Of a stretch of DNA of 29,913 nucleotides, positions 754 to 21,683 are shown one piece after another. Positions within the stretch are counted from its first letter, which is position 1; the number at the start of each line of letters is the position of its first letter. Both the position numbers and the translations under genes were made by a program. Below the pieces are notes generated by a model that had not been told where the DNA came from, searched no databases, and saw nothing but the letters and a program-made list of their open reading frames with translations. Source of the stretch: a virus; the IMG/VR virus record IMGVR_UViG_3300008267_000241, positions 1 to 29,913 of that record; one strand, 5' to 3'.

Positions 754-1707
754 TTATGTTCCAAGTGAATTCCCTTTGAAATACAAAGTAGTTAATGAAT
801 TATCAAATAATAGTTCTGTCGATGGAAAAGTGGTATATACATGGTAAGTTGTTTGAGAATAGGTTGAACCTGTATAATAAAATCCTCTTGTGTAGATTGA
901 TGAGTCAGTTTTAACTGAATAAAAACTATGAAGTTCTCCTTGACTTACATCAATTTTCTTTTGGTAAAGTGAGCCTGTTAATCCGGTGGAAATTATAAAT
1001 GTGTACCAAGCGGGGCACTGTATTAAATTTTGAATTACTCTAATAGTTTGAAAGTTTCCTGAAGTTTGAAAGTTTCCAGAATTATCAAAACCTGTATTAC
1101 TAATTGAAATTAACGACCCTGTTCTTACGAAATCATTTGTCCATCCTGAAAAATTCATATAAGCATTCATTTCTTTTTGAAATTCAACCGTATCCTCAGA
1201 TGGGGATGTCCCGTTAGAGAACCCCAAAAAATTTAAATTTTGATTGTACATATAGTTTCCGATTTCAGAGGCTCCTGATATTGGTTCAATAAAAAGCCAA
1301 GCAACATTAGTTCTAGCAATAGGACTGGCCGAGGGAGTAATAGTTGGAGTTTGTGTTGGTGTAGGAGTAGAAGTATTTGTAGGCGTTGGATTTGGGGTAC
1401 TCATACTCTGTGTAAGAGTGGGAGTTTGGGTTATAGTAGGTGTTATGGATGGTGTTGGAGTTATGGATGGTGTCGGTGTTGGGCTAACACAACTATAAGT
1501 TTCGGTAGTCGTGCATCCACTACTATCAATAATTTTAATTAAAACTATAGGACTATAAGTAAATGCCGATGGTGTAGTAAGTGTAATAGATGGAGGTACA
1601 GAAGTTACTCCAGTTAAAGTAAGTTCACAATAAGACTGATTAACATCGCATACATAAATGTTATACGGAGGTGACCCGCTTATTGTATTTATTGTAATTT
1701 GAGCCAT
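754..1707 (-). CDS. Putative tail fibre/adhesin with Thr/Pro-rich linker
   Basis: A 317-residue protein in three parts. Residues 1-74 resemble the end of one SprB-like repeat (SGSPPYNIYVCD and later IIDSSGCTTTETYSC, with paired cysteines). Residues 75-130 are a low-complexity Thr/Pro/Ser linker built from TPTPSIT-like units. Residues 131-317 form a Tyr/Ser/Thr-rich domain that I do not recognise. The last part contains a perfect hexapeptide duplication (SGNFQT twice), encoded by an 18-base direct repeat. The layout of globular head, flexible stalk and globular tip suits an accessory fibre or baseplate-attached adhesin. The gene lies 3 bases downstream of the SprB-repeat gene, whose product carries a similar linker, so the two probably belong to one adhesion apparatus. 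No signal peptide or membrane segment is visible. The function is inferred from architecture and position. Confidence 0.75.
   Translation of the reverse strand: MAQITINTISGSPPYNIYVCDVNQSYCELTLTGVTSVPPSITLTTPSAFTYSPIVLIKIIDSSGCTTTETYSCVSPTPTPSITPTPSITPTITQTPTLTQSMSTPNPTPTNTSTPTPTQTPTITPSASPIARTNVAWLFIEPISGASEIGNYMYNQNLNFLGFSNGTSPSEDTVEFQKEMNAYMNFSGWTNDFVRTGSLISISNTGFDNSGNFQTSGNFQTIRVIQNLIQCPAWYTFIISTGLTGSLYQKKIDVSQGELHSFYSVKTDSSIYTRGFYYTGSTYSQTTYHVYTTFPSTELLFDNSLTTLYFKGNSLGT
1046..1081. repeat. 18-base tandem direct repeat inside fibre gene
   Basis: Two adjacent 18-base units (1046-1063 and 1064-1081) share the 14-base core GTTTGAAAGTTTCC and differ at one later position. They encode the duplicated hexapeptide SGNFQT. 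The unit length is a multiple of three, so gain or loss of a unit would keep the frame. Confidence 0.85.
1315..1485. repeat. Thr/Pro-linker minisatellite-like region
   Basis: This low-complexity tract encodes the Thr/Pro/Ser linker of the 317-residue protein. It is made of degenerate units on a 6-base and 18-base period; the clearest pair is GTTATGGATGGTGT at 1442-1455 and again at 1460-1473, 18 bases apart. Similar units occur in the neighbouring gene at about 2190-2272. Confidence 0.75.
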
Positions 1708-1710
1708 CTA

Positions 1711-4446
1711 TTAATTTATCGTACATGTTGTAATTCCACTTATTGTAATACCATAAGAACTTCCCGATACTGAAGGTATTCCACAGAAACATCCATAGAC
1801 AGCAGTATTATTAGTTAAATCAAAGGAAGTTGGTTGTCCTATGTAAATTGGTGAAACCTCAATTGTTGCAACATTTGGAGTTCTATTTTCTATGTAATAG
1901 TAATTTGGTACTGAGCAATATGTCGAAGGTTGTAGTAAGGTATTACAAGTAAATGCCGATGTAACACCAGTAATTACTCCTCCAAAATCTAAGGTGTATC
2001 CTGAAAGAGTTCCATTGTCAACAAACTGAGAACCAAAATAAGAAGTACCATACAAATCAGTATACACTGTGTCCCCACTTGTTAATCCACTTGATGAACT
2101 AAACAAGAACTGAGTAACAGGGTAACAATCAAGTACATCATCGGTAGTATTGTAGATATAGAATGTAGAATAAATTGGTTGTAAAGAAGAAGGAGTTATA
2201 GTTGGCGTAGGCGTTAACGTAGGTGTAGGCGTTAACGTAGGGGTTACACTTGGGGTTGGTGTAGGAGTTACACACATTATTCCATTTACAGAATTACAAT
2301 TAATTACATAATCAATTATTATTGTAAATGATACAGACTCTCCTTTATAGGTTTCAACATTATTATTAACCGAAGATACTATATTAATTATATTATTGTC
2401 CACATCAATATTACAACTGTCAATATTTGGTATCGATAAAATTGATGTTTCTATTATTCCTGCAAAGTAACTTAATTCAGGTATACTATCAAAAGTCTGA
2501 GTATAGTAAAATGGGAACTGATATGGTGTTCCGGCAATTGTAATTCTAACTGAAAACGTCGCACTACTTAATGAACAATTTACAGCATCTTCAACTAAAG
2601 ATGTATACCCCGAATACATCAAATTTTTCAATGATTTTTTACCAGTCGGATTAACTGTTGGTGCTCCTGAGCTATATTTAAAACTATAGTTAGTTGCCGA
2701 TATTGGATTACAACTAACAACAGTTGTTGCAATATTACTACATCCACCTTCACCACTTACCGTTACTGAATAGGTACCAGCTGTCAATCCTGTAACATAA
2801 ATTCCAGTTTGACCTCCAGTGTTTTCACTCCACGTAATATTAAATGGGCCGTCATGATTGCTGATTAAAGCCGTAATAGTCCCCGAATATCCATCAAAAC
2901 AAGTTGTAGGATACAAATTAACCCTTAATATATCAGAGGTTGCAACGTTAGTCTTTTTTGCAACCAAACAATTATATCTGTCTCTAACGTTCACAGTATA
3001 AGTCCCATTTGGTAAATTTGCAAAGGTGTAAGTTGTGGCAGTCGTAAAAACAGTTTGTTCTCCGTCAGATAATGAATATTGGTAACTTGTTCCTGTAACT
3101 ATTATATCGGTTATATCAATTGTAATACTTCCATTATTTGAACCGCAAGTAGTAGCACTAACTGTCAAGTTATAGTCAAAATTCATAATTTTTTCTACAA
3201 CTATTTGTTCAGTGTAAGTACAAGAACTAAAAGCATCGGTTATGCTCAACGTATAGGTATTAGCAATAAGTGAACTAAAAGTTGTTTGATTAAGAAATGA
3301 ATTTTGTGTTAAAGCAAATCCAGCAGGATTAGTTAAAACAAATCTATAAGGGGGAGTACCTCCATCTACAGCAGCATTAATGAGTCCAAATCCCGCACAA
3401 TTTTGATTTCCATGAGAAGTACTTATAACCCTAAATGAATTTGGTATTTGTAATTCAGCAGTTGCTGAGGTAGTACAAAGTCCCGCATCAGTTACATTTA
3501 ATGTATAATTACCAGCAGTAAGTCCTGTAAAGGTAACTTGATTCGAAAGTAGTATTTGTGAATCCCCATTACTTAATAAGTAATAATATGGGGCGGCTCC
3601 TCCAGAAAATATAAATGTCATTGACCCATCAGAAACAAAACAAGATGGGGGAGTTACACTATAGGTGACAAGAGCCATCGGATTCGCATAATTTACTCTT
3701 GTGAACTTTGTGACTTCACATCCATAATAATCAGTTACAGTACATGAATAAAATCCAGGTGTAACCCCTGTTACAAAATTAGTAGTTGCCGAATAGACAT
3801 CATTTTTTCCACTCCAACTATAAGAAAATGGTCCTGTACCTGTTGCACCAGTAATGTAAATACTTCCACTTTGTACAAGACAAGCAGTACTATCAATTAC
3901 ATAGAATCCAAAATCTAAAGGTGTTGAACCTCTTACAATTACAGTATTACTAAAACTTTCACATCCTCCATAATCAGTTACTTTTGCATAGAAAGCACCT
4001 TCTGTAATTCTTTGAAACAAAATTGAGTTGGTGGTTGTTGTTCCGCTTCTGTAGAAACTGTCTCCACTATAAAGAACTATAGTGTTTGTTCCATCATTTT
4101 GTGTGGTATTCGCTCTTAATCCCCCATTTGCGGGTCCACATAGACTATTAGTTGTAGTTTCAAGTGAAACTCCACAACCTGTAGTTACAAAAATATTAAC
4201 ATTTTGTTGGGTTTGACTTTGGTTTGTTGAGCTATCAGTCAAAATCAAACTATAACTTCCCCCTGTTAAACCTGTAACAACATATGGATTAGATATTAAT
4301 CCTGACGAGAAAGAAGCCCCTGAAATTGGGTCAACCCAATAAGCGTATACACTACTTGCAACCGCCTCATAAGATAATGAAAAGGCTCCAGCCCCTGTAT
4401 TATTACAGTCACCAGTGAGACTAAAACTATAAAAAATATTTGCCAT
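1711..4446 (-). CDS. SprB-like repeat tail fibre/adhesin
   Basis: A 911-residue protein. Residues about 10-580 form roughly seven degenerate repeats of 70-90 residues, beginning near residues 10, 91, 185, 265, 346, 430 and 512. Typical elements are an early Cys with a following Gly-Ser-Ile/Met strand (SCFVSDGSMTF), a GG-x-PY-x-Y segment (SGGAAPYYYL) and a closing motif such as LTAGNYTLNVTDAGLC or VTPGFYSCTVTDYYGC. This is the pattern of the SprB repeat family, named after the Flavobacterium gliding adhesin SprB. Residues 581-725 and 753-911 are Cys-containing beta-rich domains that I do not recognise, joined by a Thr/Pro linker at about 726-752. No secretion signal or type IX sorting domain is visible, which fits a virion protein rather than a host surface protein. 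The gene sits 3 bases after the 978-residue baseplate gene, suggesting a fibre attached to it. The repeat assignment is fairly sure; the adhesion role is inferred. Confidence 0.8.
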   Translation of the reverse strand: MANIFYSFSLTGDCNNTGAGAFSLSYEAVASSVYAYWVDPISGASFSSGLISNPYVVTGLTGGSYSLILTDSSTNQSQTQQNVNIFVTTGCGVSLETTTNSLCGPANGGLRANTTQNDGTNTIVLYSGDSFYRSGTTTTNSILFQRITEGAFYAKVTDYGGCESFSNTVIVRGSTPLDFGFYVIDSTACLVQSGSIYITGATGTGPFSYSWSGKNDVYSATTNFVTGVTPGFYSCTVTDYYGCEVTKFTRVNYANPMALVTYSVTPPSCFVSDGSMTFIFSGGAAPYYYLLSNGDSQILLSNQVTFTGLTAGNYTLNVTDAGLCTTSATAELQIPNSFRVISTSHGNQNCAGFGLINAAVDGGTPPYRFVLTNPAGFALTQNSFLNQTTFSSLIANTYTLSITDAFSSCTYTEQIVVEKIMNFDYNLTVSATTCGSNNGSITIDITDIIVTGTSYQYSLSDGEQTVFTTATTYTFANLPNGTYTVNVRDRYNCLVAKKTNVATSDILRVNLYPTTCFDGYSGTITALISNHDGPFNITWSENTGGQTGIYVTGLTAGTYSVTVSGEGGCSNIATTVVSCNPISATNYSFKYSSGAPTVNPTGKKSLKNLMYSGYTSLVEDAVNCSLSSATFSVRITIAGTPYQFPFYYTQTFDSIPELSYFAGIIETSILSIPNIDSCNIDVDNNIINIVSSVNNNVETYKGESVSFTIIIDYVINCNSVNGIMCVTPTPTPSVTPTLTPTPTLTPTPTITPSSLQPIYSTFYIYNTTDDVLDCYPVTQFLFSSSSGLTSGDTVYTDLYGTSYFGSQFVDNGTLSGYTLDFGGVITGVTSAFTCNTLLQPSTYCSVPNYYYIENRTPNVATIEVSPIYIGQPTSFDLTNNTAVYGCFCGIPSVSGSSYGITISGITTCTIN
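2190..2272. repeat. Thr/Pro-linker repeat with 18-base tandem unit
   Basis: The linker-coding tract contains the 17-base string GTAGGCGTTAACGTAGG at 2207-2223 and again at 2225-2241, an exact 18-base period encoding a six-residue Thr/Pro/Leu unit. Degenerate GTAGGNGTT-type units continue on both sides. It resembles the linker tract at 1315-1485 in the adjacent gene. Confidence 0.8.
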
Positions 4447-4449
4447 ACG

Positions 4450-7386
4450 TTACAAACAAGCGAAGTTTACATTTTTATACTCCAAATTGAAGTCGATTGA
4501 CTCTATTATCAAACAATCTTCTGAAGTAATTATTAATTCATTTAATTCATAGGATGCTGTAAGTCCTGCACTTGCAAATTCACCCATTAAATACCCCAAA
4601 CCTTGTGTTACAAATGTGGTCCACTGAGCCTCTTTTATTACTTGTGTGGGGTAACTATATTTTTCTGTATCTGTGTAATTAAAGGTATAAGTAACTCCAT
4701 TCTTAACAACAACTATCTCAAATGCATAATTTAAATTTTGAACAGTCGGATTTAATCCTTTACAATCTATTGTTTTAGAAAGAGTTCCTAGATTTGATTG
4801 TATTAAATTTCCGTCATATTTCAATACTAAACTCATCAAAGAAGCCGGACATCCTTGTGGTGCAAATCCTCCTAAAACTTGTGGTCCTAAAATTTGAACT
4901 TCAAGTGGGAGGCACCCTCTTTGCATCCTATAAGAAAATTTTTGTCTGTGAAATATTGAATTTTCAATTCTTGTTCCCGTATTCCAAAGTGTTGTTGCCG
5001 GTATAAATTGTTCTACAAGTTTGACCCAAAAATTTCCAATACCATTAACATAATCAATCATCTTAGTATAAGAGAACCCATTATTTTCAATACCAGCGTC
5101 TTGTTCACTTTCCAAGTAACTATAAAATATATTTTGTAAAAATGGATATCCACCTGTCTTACCGTCACTAGATATTTGTCTATTTCTCACATTAATCATG
5201 TTTCTCCAAAAACTTTCTTTAAATTCGAAGAAATCTTTGATTTGAGGTTTGGGGTCAATTATAGTATTGTCAACATCAAAAACTGTGAACGAAGGTGTTA
5301 GTCCATTGTATGGTATAGGATAATCTTGTGTTTTAGAAAGATACCATACATCGTAAACAAGTGCTTGAGCAGGATTTAAAAATAAGTCTACATTCTTAAC
5401 GTTCATTATTAATTTTTCTTCGCTAGCCTTGTAAAACGCATCATAATTTCCGTCACTATTTTTTCTCAAAATTTCTTGTGTATCAACCCAAGATTTTTTA
5501 TTATCAATTGTTTTTTGTAAACCAAACCCCATTCCTAAGTATGGAAAGTTTCTAAACCTGTCCAAATATTTTTCTCCATATGTGAATGGTTCAAGTGAAC
5601 TTTGTATTGATGGGCTATTTCCCGTGACTACCGCAGTACTTATATCCAAAACCTCGGGGGACCTATGTTGGGGGGTTGATTCATACCAACCCTCCCCTTT
5701 TTGAAAATAGAAACCATCATTACTTGTAGGAGGACTTGGATATCCTTGTGAGTCGATTGGGTAATCAGCCTTAGTAAAAGACACATCAATAGATGATGTT
5801 GATACAGTATATGCTGTGTATGGTGCCCCATTAAATCGATATACATTGTTCGGGTCCAAAACAGGTAACTCTGAAGTGAAAGTACCCCCTGTAATAGAAC
5901 TATAAAGTTGGTCAAATCTAGATAATTGTATCTTTCCCCCAACTGTGTATACGTATTCATTAAATTCTACAAGAGCTTCGGGAGCCCCTATATTATTCAT
6001 TAAAAATTCAATAGCCTTTCTTGTTCCTTTTGATTTGAAAAGATATGCGGAATTTAAAATTAAATTTCTATAGTATTGATATTCAATTTCATCTGTAGAC
6101 ATTGAGCTAGCCATTCCAGGAAATTGACTTTCGCTTGTTTCATAAAGTGTTGACAAAAAAGAATCGCTCTGTATTGGGGATATGTTTGTATCCCACCCAA
6201 GTGTTTCTGCCAAGTTTACCAATAATTTTGATGGAACATCATTACCTATATTGTAATTAACTGAAACCATATGAGATATGGAATCTGCATATTTTTTTGT
6301 TTCATCAAAACTTCTTCCATAAATTTTAAATGTCTTCTGTACTTTTTTATCTAAAGTATCAAACTCTTTTAAAGATTCGGTTGTGTAAAATCTAGAAATT
6401 AAATCTGTCTCATATTCATCAAATTTACTTCCAAGTTGTTCTAATTTTTGAATATAATTTGTAAATTGGGGAGTTCTAATATCTATATTCCAAACTCCGT
6501 CTATGGGCCAAGTTAGTGTTTGTAATTTTATAAAGTCGTTTCCATCGTCTCCTTCAGTTAGTACTTGAAATTTAGATGTGTAAATAGGATAAGAAAATCT
6601 GTTTAATAATAATTCCTCGACCTCATCAAGTTCTAAATTGAACACCTCATTAACGGTAAAGTTGTTTGGTCTTATTACTAAAGTATCAGTTGTTGTAGTT
6701 ACTCCGCTAAAAACGTTACCTTTCACTAGTAGATATAATGTGCCGGCACTTATTGAAGTCGTGCCAGTCATATCTATAATTCTATAAGAGTCGTTTGGAG
6801 TAAATAAAGAATAACTTGTAAAGTTAGAATTAAAGTTTCTATATTTTGAAACGTCATATCCTAATGAATTTATATTTCTAGTTGCATTAATTGTGAAATC
6901 AATACTAAAAGGATTTCTCAAAGTTTGAGCATCTAAAGAAAGATAAGTAACATCTTCTTGACTATCATAAGAAATATTAAAAGCGGTATTACCAGTTGAG
7001 TAATTTTGTCTTATTGACGTTGACTCAATTGCCGCTGGGAAAAAATTAATTATATTTAAAACCGCGGCCGAAAATCTTTTCGATAATGGTCCATAGGCGA
7101 CAAAATTTAAAACGTCAGTTTGGTCAAAATTTGGATATACTTTAAAGTTTACATCATTAATTTTTTTAGCTTGAGCTACTGAACCAATGTTTAAATTGTT
7201 AAGAGTAATTGGACCTGAAAAAATTCCAGTATCAAAAAACCTATTTGATTTCTCATTATTGGTTGTTGTGACTTGAAAATTCCCTTGCGTTAATCCTCCT
7301 CCTTGAACTACTTGTAATCCAACTATGTTTTCAAAATAAAAACCTTCGGAACTTCTCCTTTGTGGAGGACAACTATAATTACTCAT
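4450..7386 (-). CDS. Baseplate protein with P2 gpI-like core (putative)
   Basis: A 978-residue structural protein. Residues about 330-475 are the most telling: a helical stretch with a KTFKIYGRSFDETKKYADSI segment leads to NLILNSAYLFKSKGTRKAIE, then to a GAPEALVEFNEYVY turn. The 'SAYLFKSKGTRKAIEFL' pattern is what I associate with tail-protein-I-type baseplate proteins, which link the wedge to the fibres. Residues about 784-825 carry WVKLVEQFIPATTLWNTG and a following HRQKFSYRMQRGC segment, a pattern I recall from large uncultured myophages. The C-terminal 150 residues contain several Cys and beta-rich sequence and may hold the fibre attachment. The start ATG is one base after the stop of the preceding gene and has an AAGGA sequence 4 bases upstream. 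The downstream neighbours are fibres, consistent with a wedge-to-fibre connector. The exact T4 equivalent is uncertain. Confidence 0.72.
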   Translation of the reverse strand: MSNYSCPPQRRSSEGFYFENIVGLQVVQGGGLTQGNFQVTTTNNEKSNRFFDTGIFSGPITLNNLNIGSVAQAKKINDVNFKVYPNFDQTDVLNFVAYGPLSKRFSAAVLNIINFFPAAIESTSIRQNYSTGNTAFNISYDSQEDVTYLSLDAQTLRNPFSIDFTINATRNINSLGYDVSKYRNFNSNFTSYSLFTPNDSYRIIDMTGTTSISAGTLYLLVKGNVFSGVTTTTDTLVIRPNNFTVNEVFNLELDEVEELLLNRFSYPIYTSKFQVLTEGDDGNDFIKLQTLTWPIDGVWNIDIRTPQFTNYIQKLEQLGSKFDEYETDLISRFYTTESLKEFDTLDKKVQKTFKIYGRSFDETKKYADSISHMVSVNYNIGNDVPSKLLVNLAETLGWDTNISPIQSDSFLSTLYETSESQFPGMASSMSTDEIEYQYYRNLILNSAYLFKSKGTRKAIEFLMNNIGAPEALVEFNEYVYTVGGKIQLSRFDQLYSSITGGTFTSELPVLDPNNVYRFNGAPYTAYTVSTSSIDVSFTKADYPIDSQGYPSPPTSNDGFYFQKGEGWYESTPQHRSPEVLDISTAVVTGNSPSIQSSLEPFTYGEKYLDRFRNFPYLGMGFGLQKTIDNKKSWVDTQEILRKNSDGNYDAFYKASEEKLIMNVKNVDLFLNPAQALVYDVWYLSKTQDYPIPYNGLTPSFTVFDVDNTIIDPKPQIKDFFEFKESFWRNMINVRNRQISSDGKTGGYPFLQNIFYSYLESEQDAGIENNGFSYTKMIDYVNGIGNFWVKLVEQFIPATTLWNTGTRIENSIFHRQKFSYRMQRGCLPLEVQILGPQVLGGFAPQGCPASLMSLVLKYDGNLIQSNLGTLSKTIDCKGLNPTVQNLNYAFEIVVVKNGVTYTFNYTDTEKYSYPTQVIKEAQWTTFVTQGLGYLMGEFASAGLTASYELNELIITSEDCLIIESIDFNLEYKNVNFACL

Positions 7387-7387
7387 T

Positions 7388-8299
7388 TTATCCTTGTGAA
7401 ATTATATTTTGGAAATTTTTACTAAAGTCAATGTTATCAATTCTATCTTGTCTAACCTCGTAAAGAAGTTCGTTAAATTGGTCTCTTATTACGTATAAGT
7501 TATATTGTCTGTAGATATTGTTATCAGAATCATAGATAGTATAAATACCGTCTTCGATTGACTTGGTTTGGTTTCCATAAAGAGCAATTGCGAGTGTTGA
7601 AGCATCATGTTCAACTATTTCAACCTCAACAACTGTTGGATTAAAAAAAGTATTTGTAATTAGTATTGATTGACTTGGCGAACCTATGAAGGGTATTGCG
7701 TTTGGTCTAGTAGTTGGTGAGGACGATGGAGTTAATGTGCAAAACATAAGATTGGTTGTTCCATCTGAGTACCTATATCTTACAGCCTTTTGTATAGTAT
7801 TTGTTAAGTTTTGAGTAACTGGTTCACAAAAAAAGTTTGATGTAATTATTCTATAAAAGTTTGGGATTTTAGTTCCATCAGAATTCAAATATTCAACTCT
7901 GAATCCGACTAATCCTTGGTTGACAAACTTGTTTCTATAGTTAGAAGGTACATCTTGCAAATTAATTATAATTCCTTTTATATTTGGTGAGGATGATAGA
8001 ACTCCGCAATCATTTATAATAGTTCTGATTTGAGCTGGTCTAAAATATATTGTGTAAATTCCTAAAGCATTAAACTCGTTTGCCGGAAGTGTCAAATTAT
8101 ATAACCCACCTAAAATTTCCGCAGTACTGCCTCCAATATTACTATTATTATAATAAGGTCTTAGATATTGAGCAGAGTCCAATCTTGTAAGAGTAAAGTT
8201 AGTTGTTTCGTCCCTTGACGGTGTATAATGAAGAATTATATCCACGTCCTCGGGACTAACATCTGCCGGTCTAACTGTTCCGTAATTACCTGTTGCCAA
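7388..8299 (-). CDS. Unknown structural protein, TTG start
   Basis: I do not recognise this 303-residue protein. It looks like an extracellular or virion beta protein: rich in Asn, Thr, Tyr and Ile, with segments such as GIYTIYFRPAQ, VGFRVEYLNSDGTKIPNFYR and DGIYTIYDSDNNIYRQYNL. Residues about 188-204 (TLTPSSSPTTRP) form a short Ser/Thr/Pro linker like the longer linkers in the downstream fibres, dividing the protein into two halves. The start must be TTG at 8297-8299: an in-frame TAA lies at 8306-8308 just upstream and no internal ATG occurs until far into the protein. The leader is nearly pure A/T, with long A runs and no Shine-Dalgarno sequence. Its place between the PKD-domain protein and the gpI-like protein suggests a baseplate-peripheral component or a small fibre adaptor. 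Confidence 0.7.
   Translation of the reverse strand: MATGNYGTVRPADVSPEDVDIILHYTPSRDETTNFTLTRLDSAQYLRPYYNNSNIGGSTAEILGGLYNLTLPANEFNALGIYTIYFRPAQIRTIINDCGVLSSSPNIKGIIINLQDVPSNYRNKFVNQGLVGFRVEYLNSDGTKIPNFYRIITSNFFCEPVTQNLTNTIQKAVRYRYSDGTTNLMFCTLTPSSSPTTRPNAIPFIGSPSQSILITNTFFNPTVVEVEIVEHDASTLAIALYGNQTKSIEDGIYTIYDSDNNIYRQYNLYVIRDQFNELLYEVRQDRIDNIDFSKNFQNIISQG
7391..7395 (-). promoter_or_regulatory. Shine-Dalgarno-like site before 978-residue gene
   Basis: AAGGA lies 4 bases before the ATG at 7384-7386. It overlaps the last codons of the preceding gene, which code for Gln-Gly-stop. It is one of two such sites in a window where most starts lack one. Confidence 0.4.
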
Positions 8300-9773: not shown

Positions 9774-10843
9774 TAAATTCCTACTGGTGGATTTTTATAT
9801 TCATACCAATTAAGTGTATCAACAAAAGTATCATTAGAAGTTAAGAAAAGAGAATATTCATCATTTACATAATCAATACTCACCCTATAATAAAAATCTT
9901 GGTTTGGGATTCTGTAGGTATTGGTATAACTTGTTTGGTCATTAACTATGAATTTAATATATTGTCCTACACTAGCGTTAAAAAACTTTGCAGACATATA
10001 TAAATTATCTATGTTCAAAAGACTTCTATCTTCAAACCAATGTAGAAAAAAACCTTCTTGGTTTCTGTTAAAGTCTGTCGCAATTATGGGTATAGCCAAA
10101 GGTCTTGAACTAGATGTACCAAGTAACCCACTTTCACATTGGCAATTTCCTAAGAAAAATATTAAATAGTTTAAAGTACTTTGATTAAGGTTTACTAATG
10201 TTTGAGCAACAATAACAACACCTTCAGCATTTAATCTTCTTCTTATAAAATATACAGGAGTTCCAATCTTAGTACAAAACCTAACAACAGTTGCCGGATT
10301 ATCTCCAACCGCCCCATTACCCACTACTGTAACCTCAAGTCCACAACAGTCGGTATATTTTAATTCGTTTGGATATAAAGGTTCACTAATTGTATCAAAT
10401 ACAAATTCATATTCTTCACACCCATTTTCTTCAAGAGTACTACTCATCCTTGTGGGTAATATAATTGTCAGATAGTTTTTTTGAGTTTTGGGGTCTAATG
10501 AATCATAAAAGTCTAACTTAAAGAATGAGTTTCTAAATGCATCAGTAAAAAATCTTACCTGACTATCAGTAAATTTAGATAAGTAACTTGTTTCAGCAGG
10601 AACGGTAACATCTTCTGTAAAATTAAATACGTAGGTTAGTGAGGTATCTCCAGCCGTATTCCTCGCTCTTGAGTATCTTGATAATTCATAGTTAGTTGGA
10701 GTTCCTATTATTTGTTCAATTATTTTTCGTTCCTCTTGTATAATAGCAGATTCCCTATCCAAAAAATCTGGATTTGTACTTATCGGAACAACAATTTCTT
10801 TGTCACCAATCGATTCTATTATTTTAATTTTATTCACATCCAT
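9773..10843 (-). CDS. Unknown baseplate/tail structural protein
   Basis: I do not recognise this 356-residue protein. The N-terminal 60 residues look helical and charged (RESAIIQEERKIIEQIIGTP), followed by a beta-rich body with notable Cys clusters: NGCEEYEFVF, KYTDCCGLEVTVVGNG and FLGNCQCESGLL. The last 100 residues contain aromatic beta strands (NQDFYYRVSIDYVNDEYSLF). No signal peptide or membrane segment is visible. Its first 14 bases overlap the end of the 592-residue gene, and its stop overlaps the next start, so three consecutive genes are translationally chained. That coupling suggests fixed-ratio partners in one baseplate subassembly. No enzyme motif is present. Confidence 0.7.
   Translation of the reverse strand: MDVNKIKIIESIGDKEIVVPISTNPDFLDRESAIIQEERKIIEQIIGTPTNYELSRYSRARNTAGDTSLTYVFNFTEDVTVPAETSYLSKFTDSQVRFFTDAFRNSFFKLDFYDSLDPKTQKNYLTIILPTRMSSTLEENGCEEYEFVFDTISEPLYPNELKYTDCCGLEVTVVGNGAVGDNPATVVRFCTKIGTPVYFIRRRLNAEGVVIVAQTLVNLNQSTLNYLIFFLGNCQCESGLLGTSSSRPLAIPIIATDFNRNQEGFFLHWFEDRSLLNIDNLYMSAKFFNASVGQYIKFIVNDQTSYTNTYRIPNQDFYYRVSIDYVNDEYSLFLTSNDTFVDTLNWYEYKNPPVGI
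9779..9782 (-). promoter_or_regulatory. Shine-Dalgarno-like site before PKD-domain gene
   Basis: AGGA lies 5 bases before the ATG at 9771-9773, within the end of the upstream gene. The start also overlaps the upstream stop as TAATG, so re-initiation may matter more than this short match. Confidence 0.35.
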
Positions 10844-12608
10844 CTATCGTTGGTAATTGTACGTCTATTATATTTAATATATTTGTTCCTTCCGGAATTA
10901 TCCTGAATATAAAATTATCATATGGATAATGTCTTCCATTCATAAATGGATAGTTAACTCCATTCCCATCTGAATCTACATATCCATAAGGATAAATATC
11001 TTTCCATAGAAACCTATTAAGATATTGTGAAAAGAAAGCATAGCTTGGGACTCCATCGATTGTTGCTGGGTCACCTTCTTCAATATAGTCCCCATAATCT
11101 TTTATCTTTAGTGAAAATAATGGTTTGTAATAATATCCCAATGGATTTTGTAGACTACTACCTATATTGAATATTTCTTGATTAAATACAAATTTATGGT
11201 AACAATCTGATAGTACAGTTTCTGTTTGGGTAATATCATTCCACTCGCACAAGTCTCCGCTGAGTCTATCCCCTTGTACTAAATCATTGTTGTAAAAAAA
11301 TTCTCTTGTACCTATTGTGTAAGAACTTGTCAAAATGTTTGTGTCAGAAACAAAATTATCCCTTTCCCACCAAGAACTACTTATAGAGCCCAAATTAAAT
11401 CCCCAACCTTCCTTTAAAGCGTTTCCCGCTTGTGTTGGCGGATTAAAATATCCAAAATACCCTCTATTTATTACTGTTATAAAAAGTTCAGACACAGGTC
11501 TATTCAAATTATCAACTAGTGTTGCAATATTAATACTACTATTAAATGATACATTATAAGACTGTGAATCTTCCTTAATTGAAATTCTTGATTCTTGATT
11601 TGGTGTGAGGTCCTCTGACTCCCACTTTTTTACTGTTCTGAATGCGGTTTGTTCAAATCCCGAATTAGTTATAATAGAATCATTTACATTTGTTAAAATT
11701 GTATGTTCTCTTACGTAATATCTAGATTGGGACTCTACTGGATTATCCGCATCAATAACTCTAAAAAATTGTCCTTTTTTTCCTTCTTCAAAAGTTGAAA
11801 CATTTTGAGGTGTACCCACATCAACCAAATTGAATATCTTTTCTTCTGAACCGAAAAATCCATTTCCTAAACTATATACTTCAAAAAGAGCCCCATTTGG
11901 TACAGGTACTCCTTGTCCATCAATAATTGTCACATTTGTTAGATTGACATATTCACCAACTTGTAAATTATGCTTTACAGGACAAGTAAATTGCCAAAAA
12001 GTTTTACCCTCAATACTTACCAAATTCATTTGATACGGTAAACCATAAAAAGGTTGCCAATCAAAGATAGTTCCGTCCAAAAAATCATATTGCATATTTT
12101 TAAGCGGATTGCTATAACTTGGATAACTCAAGTAAAATCTCCAATTATAATTTGTTACATCTCTTGCAAGACCTGTAATATGTCTCCCCGTTCCAGTGGT
12201 GTAACCTTCAATACCCATATCAGTCCTTATAAAATTAAACTCATTATACTGAGGTAAACCTGGCCATGCAAGTGTCACACTTGATACTACCTGTAATAGT
12301 TTGGTTGATTCGGGATTTATGTAAAATAGATTATTATTAAATGGTGGATACGGGTTATCAGGTGTTTGTGTGGAACCGCTGTAAGTATTTGCAAAAATTA
12401 ATTGGAATTTACAGGATGGGGCAAAAAATGTAGATTTTTGCCTTTCTAAATCAAAGACCTCAGCTAAGTCAATTGTCAAATTTCTTTGATATTCATCTAA
12501 CTCCTTAACTTTCCCTGAAAGGGGTGCAGTAATCTGAACTGGAACCTCGGGAGCTCTTTTATATCTTAAACTTCCTTTTACAAAAGTTATGTTACCTAAA
12601 TCACTCAT
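10830..12608 (-). CDS. Unknown baseplate/tail structural protein
   Basis: I do not recognise this 592-residue protein. It begins MSDLGNITFVKGSLRYKRAP, has a proline- and aromatic-rich body (NPYPPFNNNLFYINPES, WRFYLSYPSYSNP), and ends in a segment dense in Tyr, Asp and Gly (KDIYPYGYVDSDGNGVNYPF). It has few Cys and no signal peptide, membrane segment or enzyme motif. Its ATG overlaps the last 8 bases of the giant gene, whose stop is TGA, so its translation probably depends on ribosomes finishing that gene. By order it occupies the place where T4 has gp8 or a nearby wedge protein, but I see no sequence support for that equation. A structural role is inferred from location. Confidence 0.7.
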   Translation of the reverse strand: MSDLGNITFVKGSLRYKRAPEVPVQITAPLSGKVKELDEYQRNLTIDLAEVFDLERQKSTFFAPSCKFQLIFANTYSGSTQTPDNPYPPFNNNLFYINPESTKLLQVVSSVTLAWPGLPQYNEFNFIRTDMGIEGYTTGTGRHITGLARDVTNYNWRFYLSYPSYSNPLKNMQYDFLDGTIFDWQPFYGLPYQMNLVSIEGKTFWQFTCPVKHNLQVGEYVNLTNVTIIDGQGVPVPNGALFEVYSLGNGFFGSEEKIFNLVDVGTPQNVSTFEEGKKGQFFRVIDADNPVESQSRYYVREHTILTNVNDSIITNSGFEQTAFRTVKKWESEDLTPNQESRISIKEDSQSYNVSFNSSINIATLVDNLNRPVSELFITVINRGYFGYFNPPTQAGNALKEGWGFNLGSISSSWWERDNFVSDTNILTSSYTIGTREFFYNNDLVQGDRLSGDLCEWNDITQTETVLSDCYHKFVFNQEIFNIGSSLQNPLGYYYKPLFSLKIKDYGDYIEEGDPATIDGVPSYAFFSQYLNRFLWKDIYPYGYVDSDGNGVNYPFMNGRHYPYDNFIFRIIPEGTNILNIIDVQLPTIDGCE

Positions 12609-15600
12609 AAACTATATTTGTGTCAACATATTTTTGTATAAATCTATCCATGGCACTAGCCCCTTGTTTTAATCCAAAATAGAAGTGAAACGGAGCACCA
12701 AATGTATATCTATATCTAGTACCCGCAGGTATTCTATTAACTGCAATTACAACAGTATTTCCGTCACTATCTGTTCCCGCACTATAATTAATTAAATATC
12801 CTTTATAATAGAAACTATTATTAACACCAGGTACAAAATACTCCGAACTTGGTCCAAATCTATCAAGGGTTTGGTAACCATGTGCAAAAAATCCATTTGG
12901 GAAGGTTGAACTATCCACATATGTAGGTGTTGCTGGGAAATTTGTAATGAAATTATTTGATTGAGTTCCAAACAAACTTTGTGGAGAATCCAAATTATGA
13001 AACACATTCCACTGATAAAAAGGTACAACTTGTGTTTTTACCGCGATGTCGGTAAATCCTGAGGGAGAAACTGGTACGTCAGCATTTTGTGCCCAAATAG
13101 TTCTTCTTGGCGTAATATAATCTCTAAGTTGATTATCTCCACTAAAAAATATACCAAAGTATGGATAAGTAGGAGTTACGGTATCCTCAGCAAAAATTAT
13201 ATCATTGTTTGTATAATTTTCAGGTGAAAATTCGTTCACACCAAATTCAGAATTTATTGAAATCATCTGGCTATAATCAGCATCCACAAGACCCGGTAAT
13301 AATCCTGAGAAAAATAATTCACCATTTTGCCATCTAGAGTTTTTAAAGAAAGCTCCGACACTTGGGTCGTCACCTCCTTGTTCATTACCACTATTGTCAG
13401 GTAACGGAAATAATTGTTGTATAAATGATGTATTAACAAGTCTACTTAATACAAAAAGATTTAATATATCAGTTACATCTTGGAAAGTAGATGAAGGTAT
13501 TCTAGGTACAATATACCCATCATAATCATCTGAATATACTATCTCTTGTATGAAGGCAGTCTTTGGCCCTAAATCAATCAAAGTAGTTGGGAATAATAAA
13601 TTTCGTTCATTACCAATTAGTCTTTGGTCTGAAGAAGAATATCTTGGTCTTCCTACAAAATTTGTCCCGTCCCATGGACTTGAGCGATAATAATAATTAT
13701 TCAAAGGGTCATGAAAATATATTGTATCTCTACAAAATCTTCTACGTGGCCTATTTTGTGAATCAAAAGTAGTTTCGTTTTGGAATGAGAAAGCATAGAG
13801 TGTTCCATTTATCCAATTGTTTGAGAACGTATGTGAGTACACATCAAAACAAAGTGAAAAAGTCAATTTGAGTCTCTGAATCCATTCCACAACTGTTGCA
13901 AAATCTGAGTACCTTTTTTGGGGTCCTCCTGGGTCAGGATTACCAGCACCTGTTGGTACATCATGGAAAAATAAGGACCTTAAAGGTTTTGATACTACAT
14001 TATAACATCCTGTTCCTCTAACAAACCATAACCAATCAGCTCCTGTTGCCGGTTCCGAGCTATACCCATCTCCACCTGGTTGTATTGCAGGATTTTCATC
14101 TGAATCTGTATAGTAACTATTAAGGTCAACAGCTTCTGCACAGTTTGTTAAAGAAGCCGCAACATTAGCAATTGGTCCATCGGCACCTCCAGGAATAACA
14201 TCAAAGTCCAAGTCAACAAATATAGGAGTTGGAAGTTCCCCACCTCCCTCTTGTTCATAGTCACAATTACCAATTATGTACATTGAAAACCCTCCATTTT
14301 GATGTAACAAATATCCATTACCATTTCCGTCTTGTTGAACATCAGTTGATGATGGTAATCTATCAGTTCTCATTACTTGATAAAATCTGTTACTCATTGT
14401 AACATAATGGTTTGGATTAACATACCATTGATTTTCGGGTACGTCAACACCAGGTGGAGGTGTATTAGGGAATACCGCATACACTGGAGAAATATATTGA
14501 GTTGCGTCCCATGTTATTTGTCTAGTTTGTCTATCTTTACCGTCTCCAGGTCCTCCTTCACAATTACCTCCTCCCTCCCATGGGTCTCCTTCATTTGGTC
14601 CCCATTGAGGAGCGTCATCGGCTCCTCCTCCAGCCGGGTCTTCATAAAAACAATTTCTTGTAGTAGAATATACTCTTTGATAAACGTCAGTAATTCCATT
14701 AAAGTCAACGGCAAGAGCTGAACCTCCCTCTACATACTCTCCTTTTTGATATCCACTTAGATTTCTTTTAGTGGCATTTGATGTTCTCTGATGATAAGTT
14801 AATCCACCTACATATAAGTTTTCTCTATATCTACAACAACCAGGACAAGCGGTAAGTCTATTTTCATTATCAAATCTATCATTATTTTCACAAACATAGT
14901 TTTGTCCTCCGGCTTCCCCATCTTGGGCAGCATCTCCACAAATTTTACTATTTGTAAATGCTCCTGCTGTTACTAATCCCAGAGTACTACTATGACAAGG
15001 TATAAATAAATTTCTTTGCAAATCATCATCATTAACCGCTCTTCCTATAAGAGCTCTAAATCCGTTTTCTTCTGAAATTACCGCAAAACCATTTTGCGTG
15101 TAGTCTACCCCATTTACCGAAAGGTCTAAAACTGCCGAAGGTCTCCACCCAAAACTTTGATATCCCCAAATTACTGTTTCACTATCAAGTGCTGAATAAT
15201 AGGTAGGCATTGTCGTATCATAAGAAACATAATCATCATTAAATCTATAGAACTGACTTGGGAAATATATTTGTTGTTGTTCATTATTAGTAATCAAATG
15301 GTGTTTTGGTAAAATTAAACCGTTAGGATTATCTGTAACCCATTCATTCTCATCTGCGTAGTAAGTTATGTCCCCTCCATTTATTAAATTAGAAACAAGT
15401 AATATATATTCATGTCCCTCTATCAGATTAATAATATAATTATTAAATAGATTTTGTGTTAAGGTAAGAACATCTAAGGTTTCTAACGTAACGTTAGTTG
15501 ACGTTGTGTTATCTCTCAAAATAATCCGTAGTCCTCCATTTTGAAAAATACTTCCACTATATCTAAGAAATACAGATATCGAGTAGTCACCAGTTTCTTG

Positions 15601-18600
15601 TGGTGTTAAAATTCTAGTATTTTCATCAAAAATACCATTATCATCAACAAAAGAATCTGTAGATTTAACTAAAGGACTAAGTTGGTCAGTATCAGGTCCA
15701 TTTGTTTGTGTAACTGTTTGTCCAAGAACTGCTAAAAATTGGTAGTCACTTGATACATTTGGGGTCCCGTTAGCAAAATAACTCCTTATAATCCCGTTCA
15801 TCCTCCATCCAGAAGTTTCAAAAACATTAAATCCGTTTGTTATAATACCTCCTGGTAAAATTGGTTGATTTAATTTGAATCTACCCTGAACTATACAATA
15901 AGCACTAATGTCATTTCCATTGATAACTGGTGTATTACCGTAGTCGGTTGAGACTCCAAAGAATCTTCTTAAATCAAATCTTTGTTCAATAAAGGGAGAA
16001 TTAACATCAACTCCTCTTTGTACAAAAATAACTCTTACGTTAGGATTTCTTTCTAAGAATTGTCCCCATGGGTTTACTTGTCCTAAAATATGTGTTGTCT
16101 CATTCCAACAAGATTGAAAACAATTTGGGTCGGGTAGTGTATAGGTCCTATTAATTATACAGGCGTTGGCCCAATTATCGGAAGGTTCGATTCCACTAGT
16201 TGCGTTGTCTGAAAATGGTTGAACGTAGTCTTCAAAGTCAGCAAAAGGATTATCAATTGGTCTATCTGACCTCATAAATCTCCATGGAAGTGAAAATCTT
16301 CTATCACTAGCATTTGATGGAGTATCAAATCCACTATCACACCAATATTCCCCTGTACTTGAGATACATAAAAACTCTGAATATGGCATTTCTTGGACTA
16401 CTTGGAAGTATTCAATATCAGAAGGGTAGCAAGTTCTGCCAGGTCTATTTCCGTCAGCAAATTGTAATTCAGGTAACCCATTACCATATGCTCCATCCAT
16501 ATTATATATGGTGGTTAATAATGGTTCCGAACTTGTCACATCAGGATTAGCGTACTTAACAGTATAAGACTCAGGTTCTAAAATAACACCAGATGTACCT
16601 GAAAAATTGCCAGTTCCAAATAGTTGACTATTATTATTAACATCAGTAGATTCGTTTGGGTCCTGAAATGTAATTACGGTACCTCTTGTAAACGCAGTTG
16701 AATCAACTAAGAGTACCAATAAATTATCTGTATGATAAAAATCTTCATAGTCGTTTTCATCAGGATTTATCGTCACCGCAACTTGATTCCAACCAACGTT
16801 ACCAGGGCTTGGTGTATTGTTAGTACCATACTGAGTTGTCAAATTGTCGAAATATTTAGCCTTTGTATTAAACAGATTTAATCTTTCTGCGATGGGTAAT
16901 GAGGTTGAAAACAAATCTACATTTGCCTCAAAAATATTTCCTCTCCAAAACGGTACTTTTCTTATTAATGGAGCAGCTGCGGAATTACCTGCAACAACCG
17001 CCGCAAAACCGTCCGTATATTCTACAGCATTAAACACATTATTAGCCCCACCAGTAGCGTAATATCCGGCAGGTGACAACCCATTAGGAACATGATTAAA
17101 CCCTGAGGTTGTGGCCGTCAAAGTAAGTGACGAAACATCATTTAAGTCTGCCAAACTAGATACATTACCCTCATCCAATTGGGTTAAATTTTGATTTAAT
17201 TCGAATAAAGTTGTATTACTTTCTTCATCTAAATCTTGGTCAACAACCTTACACCTACATCTTTCACATCCATCTTCAGTGTATAAAAACAAAGGTAGTC
17301 TGACGTTTTTAAATGGATTTTTAAGTAAGTCCCCCAAATCTTTTGGTTCCTTACAATCTAAACCAAACCTCAATTTGTCTCTTAAAAATGTACATATTTT
17401 ATAGACAACTTTTTGAATTGCCCAAACAATTGTTATTATAATTGCAAAAACAGGCCACAAAAATGCTAATACGTGAAGAAAAACAACAAGTAACAAAAAT
17501 ACAAATTTCATTATACTCAAAATGACATTTGCCAAAATGAATAATAAATTGTATCTATAATACACATCGTTAGTTGGAAATGTATTGTAATCTCCCTCGC
17601 AAGTATCATCTAATATGTGTTTGACTTGTATTGATTTTTGTGGAAATAATCTGTTAGTATATCTATCTAAAAGTTGAGATATTGTATACACTTTGTTGTA
17701 TTGGAATTCATAGAATCTATCCTCGCAGTCAATAGCCTCTTGTATCATAGTGTCATCACCGTAATCAGTCCAACTCAAGCTGAAAGCATAAGAACACTGT
17801 TGTAAATATTGTGAAGAGTTTAAGGCTTTGAAACTTATTGAGGTATCGTCAATAGTTGCGTCAATTAAATTATATCTTATTTCAACCGTGTTGTCACTTA
17901 GTTGAGGCATTGGTATTGTATTGTAGTAGTCGTTGTTTTCAACCCCATCAACTAGTATTGTATAAGATTCTATATTATTTGTATTTGATACATTATAGTA
18001 ATAATCATTAGTGGGTGGAATTGTAAACAAAAATGGACCAGTACTTGGTTCTTCTCCCGGTAAAGGTGGTGTTGGGGGAATATTTATAGTTACAGTTGGG
18101 GTTGAGAAAAAATTTATTTCGCTGTTTGGGTCGTCAGATGGTTCAATCATGGTTGGGTCCCATCCATACTCTTTAATATTTGGTACAAGGAAGTATGCCC
18201 TCTTTGTTTCTTCTCTTAATGAAGGAGACTGTTGCCATTTTACTTTAAATCTATATTTCGCTCTTACAGGTACACCAACTTTACCATCGGGAGAGACTCT
18301 TCTAATACCATTCTCATCTGTATAGACATAATCTAAATTCATGGGTAACTCAATCATCCATGTACCATTTTCATCAATGAGTTTACCGTCATTTTGAAGT
18401 TTAAAATTTTCAAGAACTGGTCTACCTGTACTATCGGTAAAAATAGTTTGTCTTATTGTTTCAATCTGTCCAGGTCCCGAAATAAGGTCGCAGAGCCATC
18501 CTTGTTTAGCAGGAACTCTACATCTTTTCTTTAATTTCTTTTTATCAGTACTTGAAAACATTGAGCCAATGAAAACCGCTGTTGGTTGGAATTCTATTCC

Positions 18601-19395: not shown

Positions 19396-21234
19396 TTACG
19401 AGAAGTTCACTGAGGACATATTTTTAACTCTAATAATGATATCTTCACCAGGAACTCTAACTTGATAAATCTGTGTTGGTTCTGCAAAAATTGTATCGTC
19501 AATTAATTCAATTTTTCTTGTTGCAGGGTCAGAGTATTTTTGTGAGGTTTCAGATGAAGAGTATGCCCCTCCTACTTTATTGTAAACTGAAATATCTGAT
19601 ATAGTTATAACACCGTTTTCGGATTGTATAATTCTTCTTAATTCTGATATATTTACATTTTCCCCCATTTCTCTGTTAACAGGACTCATAAAATCAGAAA
19701 TTCTAACTATTACATTAGAAATTATAACTCCTTGGTTTTGTGAAGCGTCCAAAACTAAAGATACATCAAAAGATAAATCAATTACACTTGCAGATGTAAC
19801 AAATATGTAATCATTTATCATCCTATAGTTAGATAAATAATTTGCAATGTTTCTCTTTAGTGTGTCTGAAATTACAGGAACTAACTTTCCATTACTATCA
19901 TAAGACAAGACATTCACTTTAATTTTATTATCTTCTTCGGTAATAGATACTTTTACTGGTGAACCGAATTGAGATGGCATTTTTCTAAGAATCGCCTCAT
20001 AGTCATTTATGGTTACAGCTCTATTTTGGGCTGCAAAATTAAATGTAGTGTAATATCTAACTTCCTCAGTTGTTGGTACACCGGCTCCTCCAATAGCAGC
20101 GGTAATGTTAGTACATCCTAATGAATTAATTACATTTGTATTTGTAGTCGTTGAAGGTCCATTTACGTTGAAATTTACTGTTCCGACCTGATTAATTATG
20201 TTAACACCTAAATTTGTTCCAAGTCCTCCTCCTATTCTATATTGAATAAATAAAGTAGAATTTGACTTTAGAGTGGAACCAAGTGAGAAATTGTTTTGGT
20301 ATTTAGATAAATCTAATGGTGTTCCGTTTCTTGCAAAGTCTCTTAAAAGTTCATCAGAGGATGTATTACCTCCACCAAAAGTTAATTTACTGAAACCTTC
20401 AGGTGTAAACTCAGTAATAAATCTATCATTTGTTTGTATATACCTACCAACCTTTATACCAGGTGTGTCAGATGCCTTTGTAGGGTCCTCAATAAATATT
20501 CTGTCTTCAGCAAGAGCTTGTACTTCATACCATCTATTTGCAGAACCTAAAAATTCTTGAGCCGATGGAACATTTGTATAGGTCGTTCCGTCTTTTAGTA
20601 AAACACTTGTAACCCCCAAAACATTTTTTTCAGGTAAAAATATTTCATAAAAAGGTCTAGACTCAGCATCCCCTATACTTTTTTTAAACACTTTAGTTAA
20701 TCCATTAACTACAGCTTCTCTTTTTACAATTGTGTAGTTGATTAACTGATTGTTTGCGTTAAAGTTTGGGATTACTTTTCTGTTTGGAAACCCACTACTG
20801 TTATAATTTGCCGCAAAATCTACATCATCCGCAGTTTCAAAAACTTGTCCAGCTCCCAAAACTTGACTACCTCTTCTCAATATTCCGCAATATCTTAAAT
20901 CTTCTTTATCTCCAAGTGCGGGGACTGTAATTGAGAATTCAACAAGCGCTACGGATGGTCTTTGTCCTGGTATCTTTAATCCATAAGTTCTTGCAATGTT
21001 ATAAATTGAAGACCTTTGTTGGGCGTACTGTAGTACCGTTTCTTGTAAACTTCTATCAATATGATAATGAAGGTTGTCAGTTACAGCAGCATTCAAATCC
21101 ATGAATACACTGAATATAGCAGCATCATTAAAATTTGTTACTAACTCAGGATAATAAGTTTTTGTAAAATTAATCAGCTCTTGTCTGATATTTTGAAAAT
21201 CTCTTGTTGTATATGAAATTTGCTTATTAGCCAT
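19396..21234 (-). CDS. 6: Baseplate wedge protein, T4 gp6-like (baseplate J)
   Basis: A 612-residue protein, close to the 660 of T4 gp6. The N-terminus is characteristic: ISYTTRDFQNIRQELINFTK, then YYPELVTNFNDAAIFSVFMD and DRSLQETVLQYAQQRSSIYN, which I recognise from gp6/baseplate-J wedge proteins of many myophages. The central part (LRRGSQVLGAGQVFETADD) and a C-terminal stretch on NDYEAILRKMPSQFGSPVKV fit the same family. In T4, gp6 dimers form the ring that holds the wedges together around the hub and moves during sheath contraction. It lies directly after the gp25-like gene (5-base gap), the usual pairing in contractile tails. The leader ATAACAAAAATG has no Shine-Dalgarno sequence. The family call is confident. 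Confidence 0.9.
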   Translation of the reverse strand: MANKQISYTTRDFQNIRQELINFTKTYYPELVTNFNDAAIFSVFMDLNAAVTDNLHYHIDRSLQETVLQYAQQRSSIYNIARTYGLKIPGQRPSVALVEFSITVPALGDKEDLRYCGILRRGSQVLGAGQVFETADDVDFAANYNSSGFPNRKVIPNFNANNQLINYTIVKREAVVNGLTKVFKKSIGDAESRPFYEIFLPEKNVLGVTSVLLKDGTTYTNVPSAQEFLGSANRWYEVQALAEDRIFIEDPTKASDTPGIKVGRYIQTNDRFITEFTPEGFSKLTFGGGNTSSDELLRDFARNGTPLDLSKYQNNFSLGSTLKSNSTLFIQYRIGGGLGTNLGVNIINQVGTVNFNVNGPSTTTNTNVINSLGCTNITAAIGGAGVPTTEEVRYYTTFNFAAQNRAVTINDYEAILRKMPSQFGSPVKVSITEEDNKIKVNVLSYDSNGKLVPVISDTLKRNIANYLSNYRMINDYIFVTSASVIDLSFDVSLVLDASQNQGVIISNVIVRISDFMSPVNREMGENVNISELRRIIQSENGVITISDISVYNKVGGAYSSSETSQKYSDPATRKIELIDDTIFAEPTQIYQVRVPGEDIIIRVKNMSSVNFS

Positions 21235-21239
21235 TTTTG

Positions 21240-21683
21240 TTATAAATTTATAATTATGAAGTCACTAGAATTAAATACATTACTAGTAATTGTGTAATCT
21301 ATTTTTACTTTAGCAGTATATTCAACGGAAGACCTTCCTGGCATTTCAAAAGTTTTAGTTTCACTAACCCCTCCCAATTCATCATCAGTTGCAGGATATA
21401 CCGATATTTTATTAACTTGTAAGTTTGGTATATACGTTCTAACCGAATCCCTTATCTCAGCCTCAATTTGATTAAATGTAGGACCATCCAAAGGTTCAAA
21501 TATAAATTCATAAAGACGTGTTCCAAAGTCAGGTAAAAAATATCTTGAACCCTTTCTTGTTAAAAGTAAGTGAATCAAACTATTTCTGATTTCTTCATCT
21601 TCGTAATCAGATAAATCTAAATACTTTCCGTCAAATGAATCCCTAAAGGGAAACGTTACACCATATGTTTTACCATTTGCCAT
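21240..21683 (-). CDS. 25: Baseplate wedge/sheath initiator, gp25-like
   Basis: A 147-residue protein of the GPW/gp25 family, close to the usual 130-150 residues. The core at residues 31-64 is diagnostic: EIRNSLIHLLLTRKGSRYFL followed by PDFGTRLYEFIFEP. After it comes a helix (FNQIEAEIRDSVRTYIPNL) and closing beta strands. In contractile tails this protein joins the wedge to the first sheath ring and starts sheath assembly; the old 'lysozyme' label is not supported by its role in solved baseplates. The N-terminus (TFPFRDSFDGKYLDLSDYED) is about 20 residues longer than the minimal domain. It sits between the 207-residue unknown and gp6, 17 bases downstream of the former. The leader is A/T-rich without a Shine-Dalgarno sequence. 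Confidence 0.93.
   Translation of the reverse strand: MANGKTYGVTFPFRDSFDGKYLDLSDYEDEEIRNSLIHLLLTRKGSRYFLPDFGTRLYEFIFEPLDGPTFNQIEAEIRDSVRTYIPNLQVNKISVYPATDDELGGVSETKTFEMPGRSSVEYTAKVKIDYTITSNVFNSSDFIIINL

What the first reader, a model, noticed from the sequence alone, without database searches (positions are those of the whole stretch)
2700..4420. Phage tail adhesin built from SprB-like repeats
The 911-residue protein has about seven degenerate units with the Cys, GG-x-PY-x-Y and G-x-Y-x-V-x-V-T-D-x-x-G-C signature of SprB repeats, a family best known from surface adhesins of gliding Bacteroidota. In a phage fibre this suggests that host adhesin domains were captured, either to bind the same glycans as the host adhesin or to mimic the host surface. 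It also gives a host prediction.
Basis: partly seen in the sequence, partly recalled or inferred. Interest (0 to 1): 0.62.

Follow-up and report, generated by a model that had tools for sequence, protein, structure and literature searches.

The report
Seven SprB-type domains in phage tail
A tail protein of a large, uncultured phage group carries exactly seven copies of a domain otherwise known from the surface adhesins of Bacteroidota bacteria; the number and order of copies never vary among 127 distinct relatives, so it looks like an old, fixed part of the phage tail rather than a recent theft from the host.

Summary
The 911-aa protein (1711-4446, minus strand) matches Pfam SprB (E=2e-11, above cut-off) and has exactly seven degenerate Ig-like units (residues 1-582), then an alpha/beta domain, a PTPTPS linker and a variable C-terminus. 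AlphaFold2 (mean pLDDT 75.6) predicts beta strands throughout the seven units; the closest solved structure is the Aureispira grappling-hook protein.

The gene lies in the baseplate/fibre module of a T4-like myophage. A neighbour-anchored IMG/VR survey found it wherever enough sequence remained: 166 complete arrays (127 distinct, about 60 clusters at 70% identity), all with seven units. Units are orthologous by position (844 of 882 best matches across distant arrays). Bacterial SprB-repeat proteins carry 1-40 more similar units. The domain after the array is homologous to the C-terminus of the upstream baseplate protein in related phages, suggesting a shared docking role.

'SprB repeats in a phage tail' and 'Bacteroidota host' are supported, the host also by absent Shine-Dalgarno signals and Flavobacterium-phage kinship. 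Recent capture, same-glycan binding and mimicry are not. Closest precedent: crAssphage's eight-BACON array, so a new variant of a known kind. UniProt already labels one relative 'SprB repeat' automatically; I found no paper on it.

The parts
1711..4446 (-). 911-aa baseplate/fibre protein with seven SprB-type Ig-like units
4174..4446 (-). unit 1 (residues 1-91), most divergent; conserved LTGDC start
3916..4173 (-). unit 2 (residues 92-177)
3676..3915 (-). unit 3 (residues 178-257), starts with the widely conserved DFGFYV
3433..3675 (-). unit 4 (residues 258-338), best SprB match
3178..3432 (-). unit 5 (residues 339-423)
2926..3177 (-). unit 6 (residues 424-507)
2701..2925 (-). unit 7 (residues 508-582)
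2287..2700 (-). alpha/beta domain (residues 583-720), homologous to the C-terminus of the upstream baseplate-module protein in related phages
   Evidence: clean profile hits E 8e-11 to 3e-10 in L018/L019/L020/L041, 8e-7 to 4e-4 in six others; fold
2176..2265 (-). Pro/Thr/Ser-rich linker, present in some relatives only
1714..2175 (-). variable C-terminal region; 40 of 73 relatives scored end before it
   Evidence: not modelled (pLDDT about 25)
4450..7386 (-). 978-aa baseplate-module protein; its profile reaches proteins shortly after gp6 in other myophages
7388..8299 (-). 303-aa highly conserved module protein, used as anchor for the copy-number survey
754..1707 (-). 317-aa protein with a possible single distant SprB-like N-terminal unit and a PTPTPS linker
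   Evidence: hhalign 86% probability, E 5e-6; no Pfam match
19396..21234 (-). gp6-like baseplate wedge protein
   Evidence: PHROG 219, E 1e-19; Flavobacterium phage immuto, E 9e-48
21240..21683 (-). gp25-like baseplate wedge protein
   Evidence: PHROG 261, E 3e-19

Best explanation
It is a baseplate-associated arm or side fibre of a T4-like myophage that infects Bacteroidota. Shown: seven SprB-type units in fixed number, order and near-constant linkers, followed by a domain shared with the adjacent baseplate-module protein, inside the baseplate/fibre gene block. Inferred: the units form a rod of set length made of non-interchangeable Ig-like domains; the domain after the array docks it to, or assembles it with, the baseplate; the variable C-terminal extension and the fibre proteins encoded downstream contact the cell. 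The array works mainly as a structural spacer adapted to the Bacteroidota surface, with any ligand binding secondary and specific to single units.
For: 166 of 166 complete arrays have seven units (127 distinct sequences, 60 clusters at 70% identity); none of the 239 anchored loci with at least 5.5 kb downstream lacked the gene (the one array scored as six has a weak unit 1, E=0.019). The best match in arrays under 45% identical falls at the same position for 844 of 882 units; linkers are 9-14 residues by median. Within-array identity of 0.28 means units are not equivalent copies. The 583-720 domain is shared with the upstream protein's orthologues. Baseplate gene context. The array is less conserved (39-47%) than its neighbours (51-88%), as expected of an exposed part. 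Columns at least 95% conserved are mostly fold residues (Gly, Cys, aromatic), with no polar motif shared by all units. C-terminal extensions vary.
Against: No virion structure or proteomics; position in the particle rests on gene order and one shared domain. A fixed copy number would also arise if each unit bound a different ligand. Which end faces the cell is not shown: unit 1 is the most variable unit, and the C-terminal extension also varies. The relative placement of domains in the model is not reliable (pTM 0.35).
Confidence: 0.55

Rival explanations
1. The array is a multivalent receptor-binding fibre: the SprB-type units themselves bind glycans of the Bacteroidota surface.
For: SprB-type units are known from adhesins; the array evolves faster than its neighbours; the same hypothesis was made for BACON arrays of crAss-like phages (PMC6949934).
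Against: Units within an array are only 28% identical and share no polar motif. Multivalent binding gives no reason for an invariant seven. PMC6949934 notes that the solved BACON structure indicates a linker, not a sugar binder.
Confidence: 0.25
2. Host adhesin units were captured recently by this phage, or are exchanged often with hosts, to mimic or compete with the host adhesin.
For: SprB units abound in Bacteroidota genomes; a huge phage record carries a complete host-type SprB protein, so such transfer can happen.
Against: Fixed seven-unit register through the sampled group, position-specific orthology, no closer match to bacterial than to phage units, no T9SS domain.
Confidence: 0.06
3. 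The protein is a head or neck decoration (Hoc-like or whisker-like) rather than a baseplate part.
For: The profile weakly matches phage decoration proteins and a neck-whisker protein in the PDB (E 0.001-0.01); Hoc has the same layout of Ig string plus C-terminal docking domain (PMC10385173).
Against: Gene order (baseplate wedge genes upstream, fibre-like genes downstream) and the C-terminal domain shared with the upstream module protein.
Confidence: 0.12

Closest known systems
BACON-domain tandem array of crAssphage (gp64), PMC6949934
   Same: Bacteroidota-associated Ig-like domain in tandem in a tail-associated phage protein; fixed number (eight) and position-specific clades in one lineage
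   Different: Different domain family (BACON, PF13004), different phage group, eight units rather than seven; BACON arrays of other lineages have other numbers (five, six)
SprB-repeat surface proteins of Bacteroidota (SprB of Flavobacterium johnsoniae and kin)
   Same: Same Pfam repeat with the Cys pair and the GG-x-PY and V-T-D-x-x-G-C signature
   Different: Host ORFs examined have 1-40 more similar units, with signal peptides and sorting domains in those read; the phage protein has seven dissimilar units and neither export signal
Grappling hook protein A (GhpA) of Aureispira, PDB 9flp and related entries
   Same: Closest solved structure by sequence (E 1.7e-5) and by fold search (E 2e-19)
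   Different: 5898-residue bacterial surface protein; global superposition is poor (TM 0.20), so only string-of-domains similarity is shown
Hoc of T4 and relatives, PMC10385173
   Same: String of Ig-like domains followed by a C-terminal virion-docking domain
   Different: Capsid protein, non-essential in the laboratory, number of Ig domains varies from one to ten; no link to SprB-type units tested
A0A6J5LD72, 'SprB repeat [uncultured Caudovirales phage]'
   Same: 39% identical over the array; a member of this very family, labelled by automatic annotation
   Different: No experimental or published description found

Membership tests
SprB repeat (Pfam PF13573) | score above the curated Pfam cut-off | tested here: met
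   43.7 bits against 28; 19 of 19 relatives match
SprB repeat (Pfam PF13573) | tandem array with Cys pair and Y-x-V-x-V-T-D-x-x-G-C | tested here: met
   seven units; conserved Cys in all units, a pair in units 2-7
SprB-type T9SS surface adhesin | T9SS C-terminal sorting domain | tested here: not met
   no NCBIfam sorting domain in the window protein, while the LR756502 protein has TIGR04131
SprB-type T9SS surface adhesin | N-terminal signal peptide | tested here: inconclusive
   the protein starts MANIFYSFSLTGDC, unit 1 itself, with no basic-hydrophobic signal visible by eye; no predictor was available
SprB-type T9SS surface adhesin | adhesive function on the cell surface | not testable with these tools
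   needs binding assays
Ig-like phage tail/fibre proteins | tandem beta-sandwich-like domains in a gene of the tail module | tested here: met
Ig-like phage tail/fibre proteins | present in the virion | not testable with these tools
   needs virion proteomics or cryo-EM
Hoc | Hoc C-terminal capsid-binding domain | tested here: not met
   no Pfam or PHROG match to Hoc in the protein; the domain after the array matches the upstream baseplate-module protein instead
BACON arrays (PF13004) | BACON domain match | tested here: not met
   no PF13004 match in the window protein or in any aligned member at E 0.001

The most novel reading that the evidence does not exclude
A baseplate arm whose reach is set by exactly seven specialised SprB-type domains: a fixed-length structural ruler built from a Bacteroidota adhesin fold and docked by a domain duplicated between baseplate neighbours, conserved throughout a widespread but uncultured myophage group.
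Probability: 0.35. Interest if true: 0.6.

Novelty: new variant of a known kind. Interest (0 to 1): 0.42.

Why it matters
It shows a second Bacteroidota surface-domain family (after BACON) built as a fixed tandem array into phage tails, in a different phage group with hundreds of IMG/VR contigs. The invariant seven-unit register turns 'domain capture' into a testable structural question (why seven, and what does each position contact), and the gene is a marker for finding and host-assigning these uncultured phages.

Tried and rejected
Scan of GTDB genomes for relatives of the whole protein: none. Single 70-aa consensus against INPHARED by tblastn: no match. Search of 396 Bacteroidota genomes for the 303-aa anchor, as a host link: nothing, and uninformative. 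First AlphaFold2 run with six sequences: poor (mean pLDDT 51), replaced by the 19-sequence run. hhalign of the domain after the array against the C-terminus of the window's own 978-aa protein: not significant (12%; the profile used had drifted into the repeats); the homology appears with a clean profile and only for orthologues in related phages. Tree of phage and bacterial units: positions 1, 4 and 7 are pure clades, the deep order is unresolved. Recent capture and mimicry rejected on the fixed register.

Full report
What is there. The window is a 29.9-kb virus fragment with genes of a T4-like myophage: gp25- and gp6-like baseplate wedge proteins, NrdA/NrdB, a DnaB-like helicase, an exonuclease and a UvsX-like recombinase. 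The genes of the module are on the minus strand. Reading downstream from gp25 and gp6 their lengths are 2245, 592, 356, 482, 303, 978, 911 (the finding), 317 and a cut fibre-like protein.

The repeats. The 911-aa protein matches Pfam SprB at E=2e-11 (43.7 bits, cut-off 28) with five stretches; weaker matches to other beta-sandwich families (Y_Y_Y, PKD) fit the same fold class. Hand delimitation gives exactly seven units between residues 1 and 582, and a profile trained on them finds all seven. Six of the seven keep a Cys pair. AlphaFold2 with 19 rows gives mean pLDDT 75.6 with beta strands throughout the seven units, then an alpha/beta domain; pTM is 0.35, so the arrangement of the domains relative to each other is not known. 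The nearest solved structures are fragments of the Aureispira grappling-hook protein, by sequence and by fold, with low global TM as expected for strings of domains.

Relatives. A search by sequence found 37 IMG/VR loci, with the same gene order in the three I read in full. To avoid selecting on the repeats, I then searched with the conserved 303-aa gene two genes upstream, in three scans (each keeps its best 80 hits, so the sample is the better-matching part of a larger group). [quoted passage not shown] In the rest the array is not complete or not reached; none with at least 5.5 kb downstream lacks the gene. The 166 are 127 distinct sequences in about 60 clusters at 70% identity; mean array-to-array identity goes down to 31%. 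Against arrays less than 45% identical, the best match of a unit is at the same position in 844 of 882 cases, chance being one in seven (108 of 112 in the first set). Linkers between units are near constant.

Contrast with host proteins. A consensus unit found bacterial SprB-type proteins, almost all in Bacteroidota by record title (selected for similarity to the consensus). Sixty complete ORFs hold 1-40 units, with median within-protein identity 0.47 and often near-identical copies, against 0.27-0.28 and never above 0.52 in the phage arrays. The phage protein has no T9SS sorting domain and no visible signal peptide. Window units are no closer to bacterial units (0.32-0.52) than to distant phage units (0.33-0.62). 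A tree of units keeps positions 1, 4 and 7 as pure phage clades but leaves the deeper order open. The array is therefore old in this phage group; where its unit came from is unknown.

The domain after the array. A profile made only from residues 583-720 and their equivalents matches the C-terminus of the upstream 978-aa protein's orthologues in related phages, at E 8e-11 to 3e-10 for four loci and 8e-7 to 4e-4 for six others. The window's own 978-aa protein is not reached. The 978-aa family matches a protein shortly after gp6 in Microcystis phage Mel-JY01 (E 7e-8) and more weakly in two other phages. I infer a shared docking or assembly domain of two neighbouring baseplate-module proteins. Beyond it, 40 of 73 relatives end, 26 carry a Pro/Thr/Ser linker with further sequence and seven another extension: the C-terminus is the changing part.

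Host. Besides the SprB units, the gp6-like protein is nearest to an uncultured huge phage, to Flavobacterium phage immuto and to Mel-JY01. Shine-Dalgarno-like motifs precede 5-6% of genes in this group, about the shuffled rate (3-6%), as in the Bacteroidota loci (5%) and immuto (0%); Mel-JY01 has 32% and T4 64%. In the window itself it is 2 of 16 genes. A Bacteroidota host is likely; the genus is not known.

Known or new. Ig-like strings in phage structural proteins are known (Hoc, PMC10385173). The closest precedent is crAssphage gp64 with eight BACON domains in position-specific clades (PMC6949934). One relative of the present protein is already labelled 'SprB repeat' in UniProt (A0A6J5LD72). 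I found no paper in the held library that describes SprB repeats in a phage tail (most subscription journals are missing). Hence a new variant of a known kind.

Noticed in passing
L010 (LR756502.1, 504247-529464), ORF 10132-15144: A 642-kb uncultured phage record without annotation encodes a 1670-aa complete host-type adhesin: hydrophobic signal-like N-terminus, 13 SprB stretches, PKD domain and a T9SS type B sorting domain (TIGR04131 E 2e-13, CHU_C E 5e-14). If the contig is sound, the phage may use the host's T9SS to put an adhesin on the infected cell's surface.
   Followed up: partly
window 754-1707 and equivalents (L007 12209-13213, L009 12130-13131): The next gene downstream begins with one possible distant SprB-like unit (hhalign 86% probability) followed by a PTPTPS linker; in L039 (14442-15785) and others a protein further downstream has two clear SprB units.
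   Followed up: partly
window 7388-8299: The 303-aa protein is strongly conserved across the group (66-93% identity to the queries in most kept hits, hundreds of IMG/VR contigs) yet matches no Pfam or PHROG family; useful as a marker gene.
   Followed up: partly
L009 10001-12099: In this contig the array gene is split just after unit 7; the C-terminal domain continues in another frame (ORF 11779-12099), so either a sequencing error or a broken gene.
   Followed up: no
window 12601-19338: A 2245-aa protein of the baseplate module with no PHROG match at E 0.001.
   Followed up: no
L007 13223-17754: Two fibre-like proteins with many SFIGGG-type repeats, the second ending in a sequence that resembles an intramolecular chaperone (S74-like, by eye only).
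   Followed up: no
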